Of a stretch of DNA of 14,887 nt, positions 2,146 through 14,354 are shown piece by piece. The notes under the pieces were generated by a model, which was not told where the DNA came from, made no database searches, and was given only the letters and a program-made list of their open reading frames with translations. How positions within the stretch are numbered: position 1 is the stretch's first letter; each line of letters opens with the position of its first letter. The stretch covers positions 1 through 14,887 of the forward strand of contig WTJB01000108.1 in assembly GCA_011526335.1 (NCBI GenBank), in the 5' to 3' direction. The position numbers were made by a program, and so were the translations under genes. The DNA is from Candidatus Arcticimaribacter sp. (GTDB lineage Bacteria > Bacteroidota > Bacteroidia > Flavobacteriales > Flavobacteriaceae).

Positions 2146-3507
2146 ATGCAAAAAAAGACACTTTCTTTTGGTCAAATCCTAACGATGAACTTTGGGTTTT
2201 TCGGGGTACAATTTAGTTTTGGCTTACAACAAAGCAACATGAGCGCCATTTATAAGTATTTGGGTGCCAACGAGGCAGAATTGCCTATGCTTTGGTTAGC
2301 AGGACCCGTTACCGGACTTTTGGTGCAACCCGTTATCGGTGCCATTTCTGACGGTACCTGGTCGCCAAAATTTGGCCGTAGAAAGCCTTTTTTCTTGATT
2401 GGGGCAGTCATTGCCAGTTTGGCCTTAATTGCCATGCCTTTTTCCTCCACCATATGGATGGCCGCCAGTTTATTGTGGATTTTAGATGCCGCTAACAACA
2501 TCGCTTTAGAACCTTATCGCGCATTTATTTCGGATAAATTACCCGAAAAGCAATATTCTTTAGGCTTTTTAATGCAAAGCTTTTTTACGGGTCTCGGGAC
2601 CACCTTAGCCAATTTTACCCCAGCCATTTTGGTTACCCTAGGGGTACTGGCCATGAGTGATAAGATGGATAACGGAATACCCGTAGCGACCTATTGGGCT
2701 TTTGGGATTGGTGCTTTTGCCTCTACCGCCACCATTTTGGTTACTGTACTCACCACCTCAGAGTATCCGCCAACGGAGGAAGAATTGGCTAAAATAGAAG
2801 CCGATAAAGCCCAGGGGAACCCGATTGCACGTACCCTAAAAGAAATCAAAGAGGCGTTTGTAGAAATGCCCAAAACCATGAAACAGCTGATCCCTGTGAT
2901 GTTTTTTCCGTGGTATGCCATGTTCTGTTATTGGCAATATTTGACCTCGGCTTTGTCTTTATCGCTTTATGATACCTTGGACCAGAATTCCGAATTTTTT
3001 GGGCAAGCACAATTATTGACGGGGAACCTAAACGGAACCTATAACATCATCTGTTTTAGTATTGCGTTTTTACTCATTCCCATTGCCCGTAAATTAGGCG
3101 CCAAACAACTGCACTTTATCAGCTTGGCGTTGGGGGGTGTAGGCTTGCTAATCATGCCACTATTAAACGACAGTAGCGTACTCTTTACCCTTCCTTTTGG
3201 GGACGGTATTGCAGTAACGCAGATCTATTTATTTTCCTTTGGACTGGGGATTACCTGGGCCTCTATGATGGCCATGCCATATCAAATGCTAGCTGCGGCT
3301 ATCCCGAGCGATAAAACCGGGGTATATATGGGGATTTTCAATATGTTTATTGTGATTCCTATGATCATCCAAATTTTTAGCATGCAGTACTTTGTTTATG
3401 ACCTTTTGGGACAAAACCCGGTTAATGTTATCCGTTTGGCCGGCTCCTTTTTAATCTTAGGAGGAATATTTTCCCTCTTTGTATCCCAGCCCAAAACAGT
3501 AGAATAA
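2146..3507 (+). CDS. SLC45-like MFS transporter (probable sugar:cation symporter)
   Basis: This 453-aa, strongly hydrophobic protein fits a 12-helix major facilitator of the inner membrane. Helix 1 lies near residues 8-28 and helix 2 near 46-66. The loop between helices 2 and 3 has MFS motif A in its SLC45/GPH form, GAISDGTWSPKFGRRKP (residues 65-81), with D69 and R78-R79. NNIALEPYRAFISDKLP (residues 117-133) and MQSFFTGLG are also family-typical of SLC45-like sucrose/maltose carriers. A hydrophilic central loop near residues 205-245 separates the two six-helix halves. Close relatives in Bacteroidota are usually annotated as maltose or disaccharide importers, but the substrate is not readable from the sequence. 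The gene follows the haloperoxidase-like gene after 9 bp and is the last gene before a strong terminator, so it is very likely in the same transcript as the two genes before it. Confidence 0.85.
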   Translation: MQKKTLSFGQILTMNFGFFGVQFSFGLQQSNMSAIYKYLGANEAELPMLWLAGPVTGLLVQPVIGAISDGTWSPKFGRRKPFFLIGAVIASLALIAMPFSSTIWMAASLLWILDAANNIALEPYRAFISDKLPEKQYSLGFLMQSFFTGLGTTLANFTPAILVTLGVLAMSDKMDNGIPVATYWAFGIGAFASTATILVTVLTTSEYPPTEEELAKIEADKAQGNPIARTLKEIKEAFVEMPKTMKQLIPVMFFPWYAMFCYWQYLTSALSLSLYDTLDQNSEFFGQAQLLTGNLNGTYNIICFSIAFLLIPIARKLGAKQLHFISLALGGVGLLIMPLLNDSSVLFTLPFGDGIAVTQIYLFSFGLGITWASMMAMPYQMLAAAIPSDKTGVYMGIFNMFIVIPMIIQIFSMQYFVYDLLGQNPVNVIRLAGSFLILGGIFSLFVSQPKTVE

Positions 3508-3528
3508 AATACGACCATATTTCTATTT

Positions 3529-6480: not shown

Positions 6481-9400
6481 TTGATTGAAGTAAATCGCTG
6501 TCATTTACGTTTGGTCCAGCGTTTACTGTTTTGCCTGTGTATTTTCCTTTTGATGGGGCAAAACAGTTATGGACAAACCCCCTCATCAGACACCTATGAT
6601 TTGGGAAGCATAGATTTACCTCAATCCGAAAGTCTTCAAAGCCAATACATTTACGACCCAGCGCAAGATCTCTATCTCCTTGTTGCTCCGCCAGGACAGT
6701 ATCCTATTGGCATTCCTTTGGTGTTGACGCCAAAAGAGTTTGAGAAAATTCGGCTAAAAGAACAGATGAATGGCTATTTCCAGGACAAGGTCATTACCAT
6801 CAGTAGAAATAAAGACGCAGCAGAAGAATTGCAAAAAAACCTCTTGCCTGAACTCTACGTCAATTCAAAATTTTTCTCTTCTGTTTTTGGAAGCAATTCT
6901 ATAGATGTGAGTCCGCAAGGTTCTATTGGCATTGATATGGGGATACGCTACCAGAAAACAGACAACCCAAGCTTGTCTCCACGAAACAGAAAAAATTTCG
7001 GCTTTGATTTTGATCAGCGCATTAGCCTAAGCCTTTTGGGGAATATAGGGGAGCGCCTCCAGATTACCGCCAACTATGATACCGAATCTACTTTTGACTT
7101 TCAAAATCTGGTAAAACTTCAATTCAACCCTCCAAAAATCAATGAACTGTCTGACTATTTGCCACAAAGCCTAAAAGACAAGGCCGATAACATTCAAGGA
7201 AAAGTAGAAAAGGCAGGAAGCAAATTGGCGAACCTGCAAAATAAAATTGGCGAGGCCCGTAGTCAAGTCAGTCAAGTCAAAAATCAACTGCAAAACCTAA
7301 AGGATAATGCAAACAACCTGGGTAATTTGGCAGGAGAGTATCAAAACAAGATCAATAATTTTCTCAATAAAAACGCCTCAGAAGATGCCATCCTGCAAAA
7401 CATAGATGTAGGGAACATCAATATGCCTTTGAACAGTACCCTGATCTCGGGCGCACAAAGTTTAATGGGGGTAAAGGCACAGCTAAAATTTGGGAACACC
7501 AACATCACGGGTGTTTTTGCAGAACAGCGCTCACAAACCCAATCCGTCATTGCTCAAGGGGGCGGAACCTTACAAGAATTTTCCATCTTTGCCTTGGACT
7601 ATGAAGCGGATCGTCACTTCTTTCTCGCCCACTACTTTAGAGACAATTACGATAAGTTTTTGCAGTCTTATCCTTTTATCAACTCTCCGATACAAATCAC
7701 CAGAGTGGAGGTCTGGATCACCAACCGACAGTCCCAAACACAAAATATCCGAAATATTGTAGCCCTTCAAGATTTAGGAGAAACCCAAGCAGAAAACACC
7801 CGTTTGGGGCAACAGTTCCCTACTTTTTTTACCCCGAGTGCTGCGGTGGGCGTTCCGGACAATGCGGCAAACGTTTTAAACCCGAAAGCCATAGGTCAGG
7901 GAGGAATATTAACCGATAACATCAGAGACATTGCTACCGTTCCGCAAGCTTTTGGTAGCTTGAATGGACAAACAAAAGAAGGCTTCGATTATGCGGTGCT
8001 TGAAAGTGCCCGTAAACTACAGCCTTCAGAATATACTTTGCACCCCCAATTGGGGTACATTTCTTTGAATCAGCGCCTGAGCAATGATGAAATTTTAGGG
8101 GTGGCATATCAATTTACTTATTTGGGCGAGGTGTATCAGGTAGGCGAGTTTGCCAACGGAGGAATTGCAGGAACATCGCTAAACACCAGTTCCCAAACCA
8201 CCGTAACCCCTGTGGTGGAAACCAATAATTTGGTGGTCAAACTGTTGAAGAGTAGCCTGACAGATGTACGTCAACCGGTATGGGATTTGATGATGAAAAA
8301 TATCTACAACACCGGGGCATTTCAGCTAGAAAGAGAAGACTTCCGACTAAACATTTTGTATTCAGATCCTTCTCCCATCAACTATATTCAAGCGGTTGAT
8401 GCTGCCATTTGGCCCGATGCCATCAGAGATCAGGTGTTGTTAAAAACATTAAATCTAGACCGTTTAAACGTATATAATGATCCTGAACCTGAGGGGGACG
8501 GTTTCTTTGACTATGTTCCCGGGATTACCATAGACCCTCAATATGGGCGTATTATCTTCCCAACGGTAGAGCCCTTTGGTGAGGCCTTGTTTAAACTCTT
8601 AGACAATCCTGACTCTGCTGCTGAAGACTACCAAAATCCAGCAACCTACAATGCCAATCAAAGCAAATATGTTTTTCGTGAAATGTATGCCTTGACCCAA
8701 GCGGCAGCCCTAGATGCTTCAGAAAAAAATAAGTTTGAATTAAAAGGGCGCTATAAATCGGCTGGGGGAGATGGCATTCCCATCGGGGCTTTTAACGTCC
8801 CGCGCGGATCTGTACAAGTTACCGCAGGGGGTCGGGTGCTTCGTGAAGGGATAGACTATACGGTAAATTATCAGATTGGACGGGTCAAAATATTAGATCC
8901 TGCCCTACAAGCCTCGAATGTACCCATTAAAATTTCTGTGGAAAACAACACCTTTTTTGGACAGCAAAACAAACGCTTTTCGGGCGTTGATGTTTCCCAT
9001 CAGTTCAATGAAAAATTTGTGGTTGGAGGAACCTTAATCAACCTAAGCGAAAATCCGTTAACGCAAAAAGCCAACTACGGCAGCAGTCCTGTAAACAATA
9101 CGATGGTTGGATTTAACACCAATTTTTCCACAGAGCTTCCTTTTTTAACGCGATTGATCAATAAACTTCCGACCATAGAAACGGCGGTTCCCTCCAAGCT
9201 TTCTTTCCGTGGTGAAGTGGCCAGTTTGATTGCAGGTGACCCCCGCCTTACCCAATTGCAGGGCGATGCTACGGTTTATATCGACGACTTTGAAGGAGCA
9301 CAAACCAATATTGATGTCAAAAACGCCCTGGCCTGGAACTTGTCTAGTGTGCCTTACGAAGGTTATGGCGGCTCGGGCATTGGGACCAATGATTTGACTG

Positions 9401-9510
9401 CGGGACACCACCGAGCCAAACTGGCTTGGTACACCATTGATCCAATTTTTTATACCCCACAAACCCGCCCGGATGGAATCTCCAACTCGGATCTTTCCTT
9501 AAACGTCTAG
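6481..9510 (+). CDS. sprA: SprA N-terminal portion, up to the amber codon
   Basis: This piece has 1,009 residues. An in-frame TAA at 6475 forces the start to 6481 or later. TTG 6481 and TTG 6511 are the only starts that keep a signal peptide (VQRLLFCLCIFLLM then QNSYGQ); the first in-frame ATG (6553) would remove most of it. The early mature part has family motifs such as IDMGIRYQKTDNPSLSPRN and LLGNIGERLQITANYDT. A predicted coiled coil at residues 231-297 (SLKDKADNIQGKVEKAG onward) interrupts it. Barrel sequence follows, with GQGGILTDNIRDIA. Three related beta motifs of the form Y/I-T-x-x-x-x-x-G-R/Y-I appear at about 518, 682 and 793, consistent with repeated domains in the SprA N-terminal half. 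Ended by TAG 9508, this product would carry only part of the barrel and be unlikely to form a translocon. Confidence 0.85.
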   Translation: MIEVNRCHLRLVQRLLFCLCIFLLMGQNSYGQTPSSDTYDLGSIDLPQSESLQSQYIYDPAQDLYLLVAPPGQYPIGIPLVLTPKEFEKIRLKEQMNGYFQDKVITISRNKDAAEELQKNLLPELYVNSKFFSSVFGSNSIDVSPQGSIGIDMGIRYQKTDNPSLSPRNRKNFGFDFDQRISLSLLGNIGERLQITANYDTESTFDFQNLVKLQFNPPKINELSDYLPQSLKDKADNIQGKVEKAGSKLANLQNKIGEARSQVSQVKNQLQNLKDNANNLGNLAGEYQNKINNFLNKNASEDAILQNIDVGNINMPLNSTLISGAQSLMGVKAQLKFGNTNITGVFAEQRSQTQSVIAQGGGTLQEFSIFALDYEADRHFFLAHYFRDNYDKFLQSYPFINSPIQITRVEVWITNRQSQTQNIRNIVALQDLGETQAENTRLGQQFPTFFTPSAAVGVPDNAANVLNPKAIGQGGILTDNIRDIATVPQAFGSLNGQTKEGFDYAVLESARKLQPSEYTLHPQLGYISLNQRLSNDEILGVAYQFTYLGEVYQVGEFANGGIAGTSLNTSSQTTVTPVVETNNLVVKLLKSSLTDVRQPVWDLMMKNIYNTGAFQLEREDFRLNILYSDPSPINYIQAVDAAIWPDAIRDQVLLKTLNLDRLNVYNDPEPEGDGFFDYVPGITIDPQYGRIIFPTVEPFGEALFKLLDNPDSAAEDYQNPATYNANQSKYVFREMYALTQAAALDASEKNKFELKGRYKSAGGDGIPIGAFNVPRGSVQVTAGGRVLREGIDYTVNYQIGRVKILDPALQASNVPIKISVENNTFFGQQNKRFSGVDVSHQFNEKFVVGGTLINLSENPLTQKANYGSSPVNNTMVGFNTNFSTELPFLTRLINKLPTIETAVPSKLSFRGEVASLIAGDPRLTQLQGDATVYIDDFEGAQTNIDVKNALAWNLSSVPYEGYGGSGIGTNDLTAGHHRAKLAWYTIDPIFYTPQTRPDGISNSDLSLNV
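7171..7371 (+). other. Coiled-coil insert encoded within sprA
   Basis: Residues 231-297 of SprA are rich in K, Q, N, E and L and nearly free of aromatics and beta-strand patterns (examples: SLKDKADNIQG, KLANLQNKIGEARSQV, KNQLQNLKDNANNLGNLAG). Hydrophobics fall with roughly heptad spacing. The surrounding sequence is beta-barrel type, so this is a helical segment inserted in a loop. It includes a 9-bp perfect tandem repeat (7261-7269 and 7270-7278, agtcaagtc) encoding SQV SQV. Confidence 0.65.
9508..9510 (+). other. In-frame amber codon inside sprA
   Basis: The TAG lies between SNSDLSLNV and [12 protein letters not shown]. In SprA homologues as I recall them a residue such as Thr precedes the Arg-Arg pair, so one amino acid is replaced by the stop and nothing is missing or added around it. 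The next base is C. Readthrough of amber codons is context-dependent and cannot be judged from this alone. Confidence 0.9.
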
Positions 9511-12500
9511 CGACGTATATTTATTCGAGAAATTTTCCCTGAACAAGACCTTATTCAAGGACAAACCACGATACAGCCTACATTAGATTTGGCTTATTTT
9601 CCCGAAGAAAAAGGACCCTATAACAATCAACTTTCGAGTCAATTTGAAGCACAGCCTCAAAACAACTGGGGAGGGATAATGCGCGGAATTAGTGCAACCA
9701 ACTTTGAGCAGGCCAATGTAGAATTCATCGAGTTTTGGTTGTTAGACACCTTTGATGAGGTGGCCTCTAGTGGGGATGAGCTAGGGACACTTGTTTTTCA
9801 TTTAGGAAACATTTCCGAAGACATTCTCAAAGATGGTCGCAAGCAATACGAAAATGGATTGCCCGGCACCGAATTGACTTCAGTGCAGACAACTGCTTGG
9901 GGAAAAACCCCAGCCGCACAATCACTCTTGTATGCCTTTGATACGGTAGAAGAAAATCGTTTGTTGCAAGATGTGGGTCTCGACGGTTTAAGCGATGAAG
10001 AGGAAAGAGAATTTTATCCAAACGGCCCTGTAGATGACCCAGCAGGAGACAATTATTCCTTCTTTTTGCAAGAGCAAGGGAGCTTAATCGAACGCTATAA
10101 AAACTACAATGGGACCGATGGAAATTCGCCAATTGCCTTTTCGGATACCAACAGAGGAAGTACGGCAGAGCCCGATACAGAAGACGTCAATCGGGATCAA
10201 ACCATGAATACCATTGACAGCTATTTTGAATACAAAATTCCGATTGAAAGAAACATGACGGTGGGCAGTCATCCGTTTGTTACGGATGTACGCGAGAATG
10301 TGCAAGTGGAGCTTCCCAACGGGCAAAGCTTAACGACCCGATGGATTCAGTTTAAAGTTCCTATCGACAAATCGTACTATGAGGGAACCTCCTTTCAATC
10401 TTATTTTGAGCGGATAAATGATATTCAAGATTTGCGCTCCATCCGTTTTATGCGCATGTTGTTGACGGATTTTGATGCCCCTGTGGTCTTCCGATTTGGG
10501 ACCCTAGATTTGGTGCGTGGCGATTGGAGACGCTACAACAAAAGCTTAAATGAGGACATCTTACCCAACCCCAATACCACCGTTGATATCAGTACAGTGA
10601 ATATTTTAGAAAATGAGAACCGTATTCCTGTCAACTATGTTTTACCCCCTGAGATTCAACGCGAGCAAATCAACAACAACAACACAGTCGTTCGTCAAAA
10701 TGAACAATCGCTTGCCTTCCGCGTTTGCGATTTACAACCGGCTGATGCCCGGGGTATTTTTAAAAGTGTAGATCTTGACTTACGCCAATACGAAAAATTG
10801 AAAATGTATTTGCATGCCGAGTCCATTCCCGGACAAACCCCATTGCCCGGCGAAGGCACAGCAGAACAATACGATGAACGTCTCGTTGCTTTTATCCGAT
10901 TAGGGACAGACTACCAAGACAATTATTATCAAATAGAGGTGCCGTTAAAGCCTACGGAATACACCGCCGGAGGGGGCAATAGTCTAAGCGCCGATGCGGT
11001 ATGGCAGCCCGAGTCCAATTCTATTGATGTTTCCATTGATTTTCTCTCCCAAATAAAAGCAGCTTACCTGCGCGGGGGGAACTTTATCCGGCCGGCATAC
11101 TATGATGAAGAGCTAAACAGGGTAAATGCTTTTTCGGCCATTAGCGAACTCCCTGGAGATAAAAAATATAAGTTTTCGGTAAAAGGGAATCCTTCTTTAG
11201 GGGCCATCAAGACCATGATGATTGGGGTCAAAAATCCCTCCCAAGAGGTGGGTGACAATCTATGTGGAGAAGTATGGTTTAACGAACTACGTATCGCCGG
11301 AATTGACAATAAAGGCGGCTGGGCAGCCGTAGGGGCCTTGGATGCCAATATTGCAGATTTTGCGAATTTTAGCGCTAGCGGTCGTTTGTCCACCGTAGGC
11401 TTTGGTAGTTTGGACCAGTCGCCCAACCAAAGAAGCCGAGAAGATATGGTACAATACGATATTGTTTCCAATATCAATGTCGGACAACTTTTACCCAAAA
11501 AATGGGGAATACAAGTGCCGCTAAACTACAGTGTAGGGGAAACGCAAATTACCCCGGAATACGATCCTTTTTATCAAGATTTAAAACTAAAAGACCGATT
11601 GAATCAAGCCGCTTCGGACAGCCAGCGCGAACAGATAAAAAGGCAAGCGGTAGACTATACCAAGCGAAAATCCATCAGTCTTATTGGGGTGAGAAAATTA
11701 GGAAACGGAGAGAAGAAACGATTTTACAGTCCCGAAAATTTTGATTTCTCTTATGCCTTTAATGAACTTTCGCATTACGATTACGAAATTGAAGCACAGT
11801 CCAACAGAACCCTTTCTTTGGGGGCCAACTACGGGCATTCTTTTCAGCCTTTGGAAATCAACCCCTTCAAAAAAATCAAGTTTATTTCAACCAAACGCTA
11901 CCTGCGTTGGTTAAAAGAAATAAACCTCAATCCTGTTCCGGCAAATATTTCTTTAAGTTCTAACATCAATAGGGCTTTCAACAACCAACAGTTCCGTGAA
12001 GTTTACCTAGAGGGGGTCAATGCTGCCGACCAGCTCAGCCTCCCAGACCTTCAACAGCGTAACTTTTTGTTTGATTGGACCTATGCCATCAACCATAACA
12101 TTACCCGTTCTTTGCGATTAAACTTTACTGCTTCAAGCAATAATATTGTCAAGAACTATTTTCAAGAAGACGGTAATGGTGGGTTGCGGGTAGATAAAGA
12201 AAAAGATATATGGGACGGCATCTGGGATATGGGAGACCCCAACCGTCATTTTCAATCGCTTAATCTTACCTATAAACTGCCCTTTGAATATGTGCCTTTT
12301 TTAAGCTTTATAGAAGCCAACTATAATTATACTGGCGATTTTAATTGGCAACGTGGGTCAGATGTATTGGCAGACGTTGTGGATGATAATGGCAATACCT
12401 TGGGAATCGTCAATACGGTACAAAACGTCAACACCAAAAGTTTAAATGGCTCTATTGCCATGAACAAGTTGTACCAGATTTTAGGGATAAAAACACAGCA

Positions 12501-13929
12501 AGATCGCCTGCGTCAGATATTGCCTCAACGAAGAATTCCGCAACGCGCACCCGACACCCTACAAGAAAAAAAGAAGAAAGAGAAAAAAATAGTAAAGCGG
12601 GTGGTGGATGTATTGGCCACCTTGAAACGCCTACAGTTTACCTATTCCGAAAACAACGGACAAGTCTTGCCCGGTTATCTGCCAAGTGTAGGTTTTGCCG
12701 GGTCATTGCAACCTACGCTAGGGTTTACGCTGGGTTCACAGGCAGATGTGCGTTATGAAGCGGCACGCCAAGGTTGGTTGACGACCTTCCCGAATTTTAA
12801 TCAGGCGTTTACCCAGTTGCACAACAGCAAGCTCAACATCAATGGGCAGTTGGATTTTGGGAAAGGGTTGATTATAGACATCAACGCAGAACGAAATTAT
12901 TCTGAAAACAGCGCAGAAAATTACGCCATCGAAAATGGAGAATATCAGCCGCTAAACCAAAATGTATTTGGGAACTTTGGAATTTCTACCCTCTTGATTA
13001 AAACGGCTTTTGACCGAACCAAGGGGCAAGAAAATAAATACTTTGATCTCTTTAGGAATTACAGACGCAACATTGCCCAACGTTTAGCCAATGCCCGCGG
13101 TATTTCTCCTCAAGACATCGATAGTGATGGTTTCCCCAATGGATTTGGGAAATCGCACCAAGAAGTCATCATCCCCGCCTTTTTGGCCGCTTACTCTGGG
13201 ACGGATCCCAATAAAATTGCGCTAAATCCCATTCAAAAAATTCCGCTGCCCAACTGGAATTTAAAATATACAGGCCTGATGAATCTCAAGTCATTGAAAA
13301 AAATATTTAACCGTTTTTCATTGACCCACGCCTACCGCTCTAGCTATACCATCAATAATTTTCAGACCAATCTGGACTATGACCCAAGCTTTCCAGAATT
13401 GAAAGATGACGGAGGCAATTTTGTTACCGAGAAACTCTATGGGAATTTAAATTTAGTAGAACAATTCAATCCACTTTTGCGTATTGATATGGAATTTAAA
13501 AATTCGTTTAAATTCCTGGCAGAATTAAAAACAGATCGCGCATTGTCTCTGAGCTTAGACAATAACTTGCTTACAGAATCCTCTGGCGAAGAATATATAC
13601 TGGGGATGGGGTATCGAATCAAAGACTTGCAATTTCGCACCAATATAGGCGGTAGACGAAGCACCCTCAAGGGAGACCTGAATCTAAAAGCCGATCTTTC
13701 TTATCGAAATAACATTACGGTATTGCGAAATCTAGAAATTGATAACAATCAAGTCACGGCTGGCCAGACCCTTTGGTCCATAAAAGTTACGGCCGACTAT
13801 GCCCTGTCAAGAAACCTTACCGGTCTATTTTTCTATGACCACAATTTTTCCAAATTTGCGATTTCAACGGCCTTTCCCCAGACCAGTATTCGTTCTGGAA
13901 TTACCATCCGTTATAATTTTGGAAATTAA
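9511..13929 (+). CDS. sprA: SprA C-terminal portion, downstream of the amber codon
   Basis: This is the continuation of the sprA frame: 1,472 codons ending in TAA. It has no signal peptide and no start codon of its own at the break. The first TTG in frame is at 9589 and the first ATG at 9679, both inside conserved sequence ([35 protein letters not shown]). Family blocks follow in order: [57 protein letters not shown], a lysine-rich loop near 12565-12600, [18 protein letters not shown], and [19 protein letters not shown]. The end, [12 protein letters not shown], is an amphipathic strand suited to closing the barrel. By itself this piece could not be exported. It could contribute to function only if translated as a fusion with the upstream half. 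Confidence 0.8.
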
Positions 13930-13973: not shown

Positions 13974-14354
13974 ATGAACATACCCGAAAATTTAAAGTAC
14001 ACCAAAGACCACGAATGGGTGAGAATCGAAGGTAACGAAGCTTATGTAGGCATTACAGATTTTGCTCAAGGGGAGTTAGGCGATATCGTCTATGTAGAAG
14101 TAGAAACCCTCGACGAAGAAGTGGCTGCAGAAGAAGTTTTTGGAACGGTAGAGGCGGTGAAAACCGTTTCCGATTTGTTTATGCCCCTGAGCGGGACCAT
14201 TACCGACTTCAACGAATCTTTGGCCGATGCGCCTGAAGCCGTTAATGAAGACCCCTATGGGGAAGGGTGGATGATAAAAATAGCCCTTGACGACCCTGCA
14301 CAAGCGGAAGAACTCTTAGATGCTGCTGGATACAAAGCCTTAATTGGTGCCTAA
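13974..14354 (+). CDS. gcvH: Glycine cleavage system H protein
   Basis: GcvH is the lipoyl carrier that shuttles the aminomethyl group from P-protein (GcvP) to T-protein (GcvT) and is reoxidised by L-protein, in the cytoplasm. The 126-residue length is standard. Family motifs are [13 protein letters not shown] (residues 8-20), [17 protein letters not shown] (26-42) and the lipoylation site [13 protein letters not shown], where Lys63 is the modified residue. The C-terminal half has the usual [13 protein letters not shown]. The ATG at 13974 gives the normal N-terminus [15 protein letters not shown]. The other glycine-cleavage genes are not in the window; a gcvH standing alone beside sprA is common in flavobacteria. 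The stop overlaps the start of the following VanZ-like gene, suggesting coupling. Confidence 0.97.

What the first reader, a model, noticed from the sequence alone, without database searches (positions are those of the whole stretch)
9508..9510. A single amber codon splits an otherwise intact sprA
SprA is the type IX secretion translocon. The frame is open for 1,009 codons before the TAG and 1,472 codons after it, in the same frame, with family-like sequence on both sides and a normal C-terminus. There is no second lesion. If the stop is real, secretion and gliding are lost or a subpopulation is affected (a switch by nonsense mutation and reversion). If the protein is still made, amber readthrough or a suppressor tRNA is needed, which would be new for this system. 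A base-call error is the dullest and quite likely explanation.
Basis: partly seen in the sequence, partly recalled or inferred. Interest (0 to 1): 0.72.

Follow-up and report, generated by a model that had tools for sequence, protein, structure and literature searches.

The report
Lone stop codon in draft sprA
One draft genome of an uncultured marine bacterium shows a stop codon in the middle of a secretion gene that is intact in a nearly identical copy elsewhere; another gene of this draft has the same kind of flaw, so a draft error or a private broken copy is likelier than any special decoding.

Summary
In detail: TAG at 9508-9510 is the only lesion seen in an otherwise complete sprA (6481-13929). 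The window is one contig of a fragmented metagenome-assembled genome (343 contigs, 85% complete, 5.2% contamination) related to Candidatus Arcticimaribacter. A nearly identical intact SprA (P0002) matches 1009 of 1009 residues before the stop and 1464 of 1472 after it, with serine at the stop. In 35 other genomes no in-frame stop lies within the sprA matches. Amber decoding is unlikely: RF1 is present, TAG ends 27 of 175 long open frames, and no CUA tRNA was seen in an incomplete set. The telling extra find is a second lone stop, a TAA, in an OmpA-family gene of the same draft; 117 of 117 comparable relatives have a sense residue there, one about 97% identical. I favour a draft consensus error (0.50) over a real private loss-of-function allele (0.44). 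sprA stop alleles are already reported from phage-resistant Flavobacterium columnare. Reads would decide. Interest is low either way.

The parts
6481..9507 (+). sprA, part before the stop (1009 codons, TTG start)
   Evidence: TIGR04189 up to position 842, 1107 bits; 1009 of 1009 residues identical to P0002
9508..9510 (+). in-frame TAG, the only lesion seen in the gene
   Evidence: read directly; '1 TAG' inside the profile match; P0002 has serine here; 45 of 45 aligned relatives have threonine
9511..13929 (+). sprA, part after the stop (1472 codons plus stop)
   Evidence: TIGR04189 845-2319, 1558 bits; 1464 of 1472 residues identical to P0002
5891..6472 (+). ruvA, upstream neighbour
   Evidence: TIGR00084; found beside sprA in 33 of the 35 loci given
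13974..14354 (+). gcvH-like gene, downstream neighbour
   Evidence: PF01597; found beside sprA in 33 of the 35 loci given

Best explanation
The TAG is most likely an error in the consensus of a fragmented metagenome-assembled genome (a wrong base, or a low-coverage or mixed-strain consensus) inside an otherwise normal sprA, and not a biological device. Shown: the lesion is single, a nearly identical intact copy exists, and the same draft has another lone stop in an unrelated gene whose near relatives are intact. Inferred: that reads over the site would show a sense codon.
For: Draft of 343 contigs, 85.01% complete, 5.23% contamination. P0002 is full length (2482 aa) and stands for 23 member sequences and 4 contigs, the longest of 94,201 bases, so at least one is not this 14,887-base contig; it is identical before the stop, 1464/1472 after it, with serine at the stop. 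Second lone stop: G000:C140 (L208, minus strand), TAA at 8568-8566 in an OmpA-family gene; four relatives carry exactly one codon between the two pieces, and of 120 listed proteins the 117 that match both pieces up to the stop all have one sense residue there, Glu in 90, including P0248 at about 97% identity. Different stop codons in unrelated genes argue against anything specific to sprA or to TAG. In 35 other genomes with a sprA match no stop lies within the matched stretches.
Against: No reads are available, so the error is not shown. The draft is not riddled with such flaws: the survey of 73 unmasked stretches (477,319 bases) gave, besides the window, one clear lone stop, and the comparison with 400 kb of G010 one uncertain one plus two weak ones and no frameshift in 24,092 aligned residues. 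All 8 replacements against P0002 lie after the stop (about 0.015 by chance if even), and at 4 of the 8 sites the window's residue occurs in none of 45 relatives, against 1 of 8 for P0002; after the stop the window is less like the relatives than P0002 in 13 of 18 comparisons, equal in 3 and more alike in 2, by 0.0015 at most. That would fit mild relaxed constraint after a real stop, or a strain junction.
Confidence: 0.5

Rival explanations
1. A real, private nonsense allele of sprA in the sampled strain: the type IX translocon is lost in those cells, for example because phage predation favours cells without T9SS surface proteins, while other cells of the species keep an intact gene.
For: sprA stop codons are listed for three phage-resistant isolates, all from one replicate, of phage-exposed Flavobacterium columnare, and ompA changes for two other isolates (PMC9233685, passages with Table 2 seen); this draft has lone stops in sprA and in an OmpA-family gene. 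The stop would cut SprA between positions 933 and 936 of the 2403-residue F. johnsoniae chain, a protein described as a 36-strand barrel (PMC10994853, passage). All 8 replacements lie after the stop, and 4 of 8 window residues there are unseen in 45 relatives.
Against: No second lesion in the gene. The genome keeps gldM and four T9SS sorting-domain matches, three over the cut-off. An intact copy is known. That the ompA of F. columnare corresponds to this OmpA-family gene was not tested.
Confidence: 0.44
2. TAG is read as an amino acid, by a suppressor tRNA or programmed readthrough, and full-length SprA is made.
For: The frame is intact after the TAG and aligns to the intact copy without a gap. 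A 5-bp hairpin has UAG in its loop. An uncertain second lone TAG lies in another gene of the draft.
Against: RF1 is present over its cut-off. TAG ends 27 of 175 long open frames in the sampled contigs, this sprA piece included by the script's rule. No CUA tRNA among 12 tRNA matches of the genome or in the fetched contigs, but the tRNA set recovered is small, so this is weak. The fold at the site is ordinary (z -1.04). The other clear lone stop is TAA. Relatives have sense codons at the site, mostly Thr.
Confidence: 0.03
3. A nonsense-and-reversion switch of T9SS and gliding kept in the population.
For: Intact and broken copies of nearly identical sequence exist.
Against: The repeat search (minimum length 10) found no inverted repeat and no repeat over the codon; no stop at this site in the relatives read; the group is inferred not to glide (PMC9122927, passage).
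Confidence: 0.03

Closest known systems
SprA/Sov, type IX secretion translocon (NCBIfam TIGR04189; F. johnsoniae SprA, PDB 6h3i)
   Same: Both pieces match the profile and the solved chain on either side of the stop; malic enzyme, ruvA and gcvH genes are each found beside sprA in 33 of the 35 loci given
   Different: One in-frame TAG; a 79-residue stretch between two profile matches, shared by the genus
sprA stop alleles of phage-resistant Flavobacterium columnare (PMC9233685, passages seen)
   Same: A stop codon in sprA
   Different: There isolates were sequenced and tested; here only a metagenome consensus exists and no phage exposure is known

Membership tests
SprA/Sov T9SS translocon (TIGR04189) | Match over the curated cut-off along the profile | tested here: met
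   Pieces 1107 and 1558 bits against a cut-off of 200; matches from 2 to 173 and 171 to 2319 in the genome search
SprA/Sov T9SS translocon (TIGR04189) | One uninterrupted reading frame giving the whole barrel | tested here: not met
   In-frame TAG at 9508; intact in P0002
Amber recoding or suppression | TAG used as a sense codon in several conserved genes, or a CUA tRNA, or loss of RF1 | tested here: not met
   RF1 present; TAG ends 27 of 175 long open frames; no CUA tRNA in an incomplete set; one uncertain further lone TAG
Phase-variable switch | A repeat tract, invertible element or recurrent alleles at the site | tested here: not met
   No inverted repeat of 10 bases or more and two short direct repeats off the codon; no stop at the site in the relatives read
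Real nonsense allele or pseudogene | Lesion supported by reads or by an independent assembly | not testable with these tools
   No reads. Truncated near-identical proteins are not listed, but neither are the window's own pieces, so the lists cannot tell
Metagenome consensus error | Reads disagree with the consensus | not testable with these tools
   Indirect only: second lone stop in an unrelated gene with a near-identical intact copy

The most novel reading that the evidence does not exclude
The assembled strain is a real surface variant of a free-living marine flavobacterium, selected by phages in the sea, that has lost both the T9SS translocon SprA and an OmpA-family envelope protein by nonsense mutations, as in phage-exposed Flavobacterium columnare, while intact cells of the same species persist.
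Probability: 0.1. Interest if true: 0.5.

Novelty: not a real feature. Interest (0 to 1): 0.12.

Why it matters
If real, it would show loss of the T9SS translocon in a wild, uncultured marine population, something reported from laboratory phage exposure of a fish pathogen. More likely it is a caution: a lone stop codon in a single metagenome-assembled genome should be held against near-identical intact copies, and against the rate of such stops elsewhere in the same draft, before recoding or switching is proposed.

Tried and rejected
Amber recoding: RF1 found, TAG is a used terminator, no CUA tRNA seen (few tRNAs recovered). RNA structure at the stop: z -1.04, ordinary. Second sprA copy: none found in the draft. 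Translation restart: the next in-frame start codons are TTG 9589 and ATG 9679; not pursued further. Truncated relatives: one search lists 120 of 440 matches (candidates of about 555-1765 aa only), some on long contigs; none of the 120 is near-identical to the window, but the window's own pieces are missing too, so this says nothing about the species. Split sprA of G017: a 100-N scaffold gap lies at the split. The plasmid collection gave no match. A paper on F. columnare phage resistance (PMC8315173) is not held. Three paper searches bore on stop codons: 'SprA + type IX secretion + nonsense mutation' gave 0, 'type IX secretion + premature stop codon + gliding' gave 2, and one on pseudogenes in metagenome assemblies gave 0.

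Survey limits: of 101 stretches (100 contigs of the draft and the window), 28 were wholly masked and dropped; 73 (477,319 unmasked bases) were scanned for places with 40 or more open codons on both sides of one stop and the best coding score in that frame on both sides. Of 35 such places two are in the window. I tested four others, without a near ATG, by Pfam: L208 is a split gene, and the other three look like adjacent genes. The remaining 29 have an ATG within 19 codons after the stop and were taken as adjacent genes without a homology test. The scan misses stops near contig ends. Of the three stops inside alignments to 400 kb of G010, two in L132 lie in one weak stretch and were not followed; the third, in L098, is under Noticed in passing.

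Changed on checking: the 8 replacements after the stop had first been called ordinary; one search shows that 4 of 8 window residues are unseen in the 45 relatives, so the odds were moved slightly, from 0.52/0.42 to 0.50/0.44.

Full report
What is there. The window is contig C326 of a metagenome-assembled genome of 1,915,142 bases in 343 contigs, 85.01% complete with 5.23% contamination. Three same-genus contigs have the lengths (39,514, 28,311 and 106,998) of records titled Candidatus Arcticimaribacter, so the genus is probably that one. The gene is sprA: NCBIfam TIGR04189 matches the two pieces with 1107 and 1558 bits, up to position 842 and from 845 to the end at 2319. The flanks are a malic enzyme-like gene, ruvA, a gcvH-like gene and a VanZ-like gene. 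Malic enzyme, ruvA and gcvH genes are each found beside sprA in 33 of the 35 loci given to the comparison (L032-L066, of the 42 found), the VanZ-like gene in 13.

The stop. TAG at 9508-9510 is in frame with 1009 codons before it and 1472 after it. Among 40 genomes searched, this one included, 36 have a sprA match; this one alone shows a stop inside a match, so 0 of 35 others do, some of which have only fragments or gaps. At the codon, of 56 relatives' loci read on the plus strand 47 have Thr, 8 Val, 1 Gln and none a stop; 15 loci on the other strand were not read in that call, and some of the 56 are one contig under two names. In an alignment with 45 relatives (17 same-genus loci and 28 database proteins, overlap possible) all 45 have Thr.

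A nearly identical intact copy. The protein search found P0002, 2482 aa, standing for 23 member sequences and 4 contigs with a longest contig of 94,201 bases. It is identical to the window in 1009 of 1009 residues before the stop and in 1464 of 1472 after it, without gaps, and has serine at the stop. It is probably the same species (inference from identity). Its sources are listed as '-', which the tool uses for proteins that the window itself encodes; with eight other differences it is not the window's own letters, so why it is so marked is unclear, and its DNA could not be read here. All 8 replacements lie after the stop; if they fell evenly the chance would be 0.015. All 8 sites vary among the 45 relatives, but the window's residue is unseen in them at 4 of 8 sites and that of P0002 at 1 of 8, and after the stop the window is slightly less like the relatives than P0002 in 13 of 18 comparisons, equal in 3 and more alike in 2. 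A strain junction, errors, or mild relaxed constraint after a real stop could each give this.

Is the stop decoded? RF1 is present. Of 175 long open frames with a stop in the sampled contigs, 122 end in TAA, 27 in TAG (the sprA piece among them by the script's rule) and 26 in TGA. Twelve tRNA matches were found in the genome and none has a CUA anticodon; the fetched contigs gave none either. Since so few tRNAs were recovered, this last point is weak. The local RNA fold is ordinary (z -1.04).

Is sprA special? No. In the same draft, contig C140 has a lone TAA at 8568-8566 (minus strand) in an OmpA-family gene. The 137-residue piece before it and the 123-residue piece after it match four relatives, with one codon between, and these relatives' open frames are longer than the second piece. 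Of 120 listed proteins, 117 match both pieces up to the stop; all 117 have a single sense residue there, Glu in 90, including P0248 at 97.1% and 96.7% identity. So the draft carries at least two lone stops that near-identical copies lack, of two codon types, in unrelated genes, within the quarter of its length that was surveyed. A third, in contig C11 (TAG), is uncertain: its gene is only 52-56% identical to the 15 counterparts listed in the genus, so the contig may be foreign.

Reading. These facts fit a consensus error of a fragmented draft best (0.50), a real private nonsense allele nearly as well (0.44), and decoding or switching poorly (0.03 each). If real, the product would stop between positions 933 and 936 of the 2403-residue F. 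johnsoniae SprA, described as a 36-strand barrel (PMC10994853, passage), and could hardly work (inference). The genome keeps gldM and four T9SS sorting-domain matches, three over the cut-off, one of these only with its neighbours. Loss of gliding is an unlikely consequence, since the NS5 group, to which this candidate genus belongs, is said to lack gliding motility (PMC9122927, passage). Real sprA stop alleles are known: in phage-exposed Flavobacterium columnare, Table 2 lists sprA stop codons in three resistant isolates of one replicate, and ompA changes in two others (PMC9233685, passages). The pair of genes hit here invites that comparison, but the link is speculative.

Verdict. Reads over the two stops would settle error against allele.

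Noticed in passing
L208 (G000:C140) 8197-8979, minus strand, stop at 8568-8566: A second lone in-frame stop (TAA) in the same draft, in an OmpA-family gene; 117 of 117 comparable relatives (of 120 listed) have a sense residue there, Glu in 90.
   Followed up: yes
L098 (G000:C11) 2448-3510, stop at 3420: A TAG inside what looks like a double ABC ATPase gene (named from its sequence, no family search), 29 codons before the contig end; only 52-56% identical to 15 genus counterparts, so the contig may be foreign.
   Followed up: partly
window 7132-7368: A 79-residue stretch of SprA between two profile matches; all 18 other same-genus genomes also give split matches there, while the 5 matched genomes of other genera in the family give one match each. 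By eye it looks helical; no prediction was made.
   Followed up: partly
window 9503-9516: A 5-bp perfect hairpin with the UAG in its 4-base loop; the fold of the stretch is not clearly better than shuffles.
   Followed up: partly
L215 (G017:C132:18900-26300): At the apparent split of sprA in a sister draft lies a scaffold gap of 100 N.
   Followed up: yes
L132 (G000:C305) 3437 and 3464, minus strand: Two in-frame stops inside one alignment to a G010 protein, in a stretch of weak identity.
   Followed up: no
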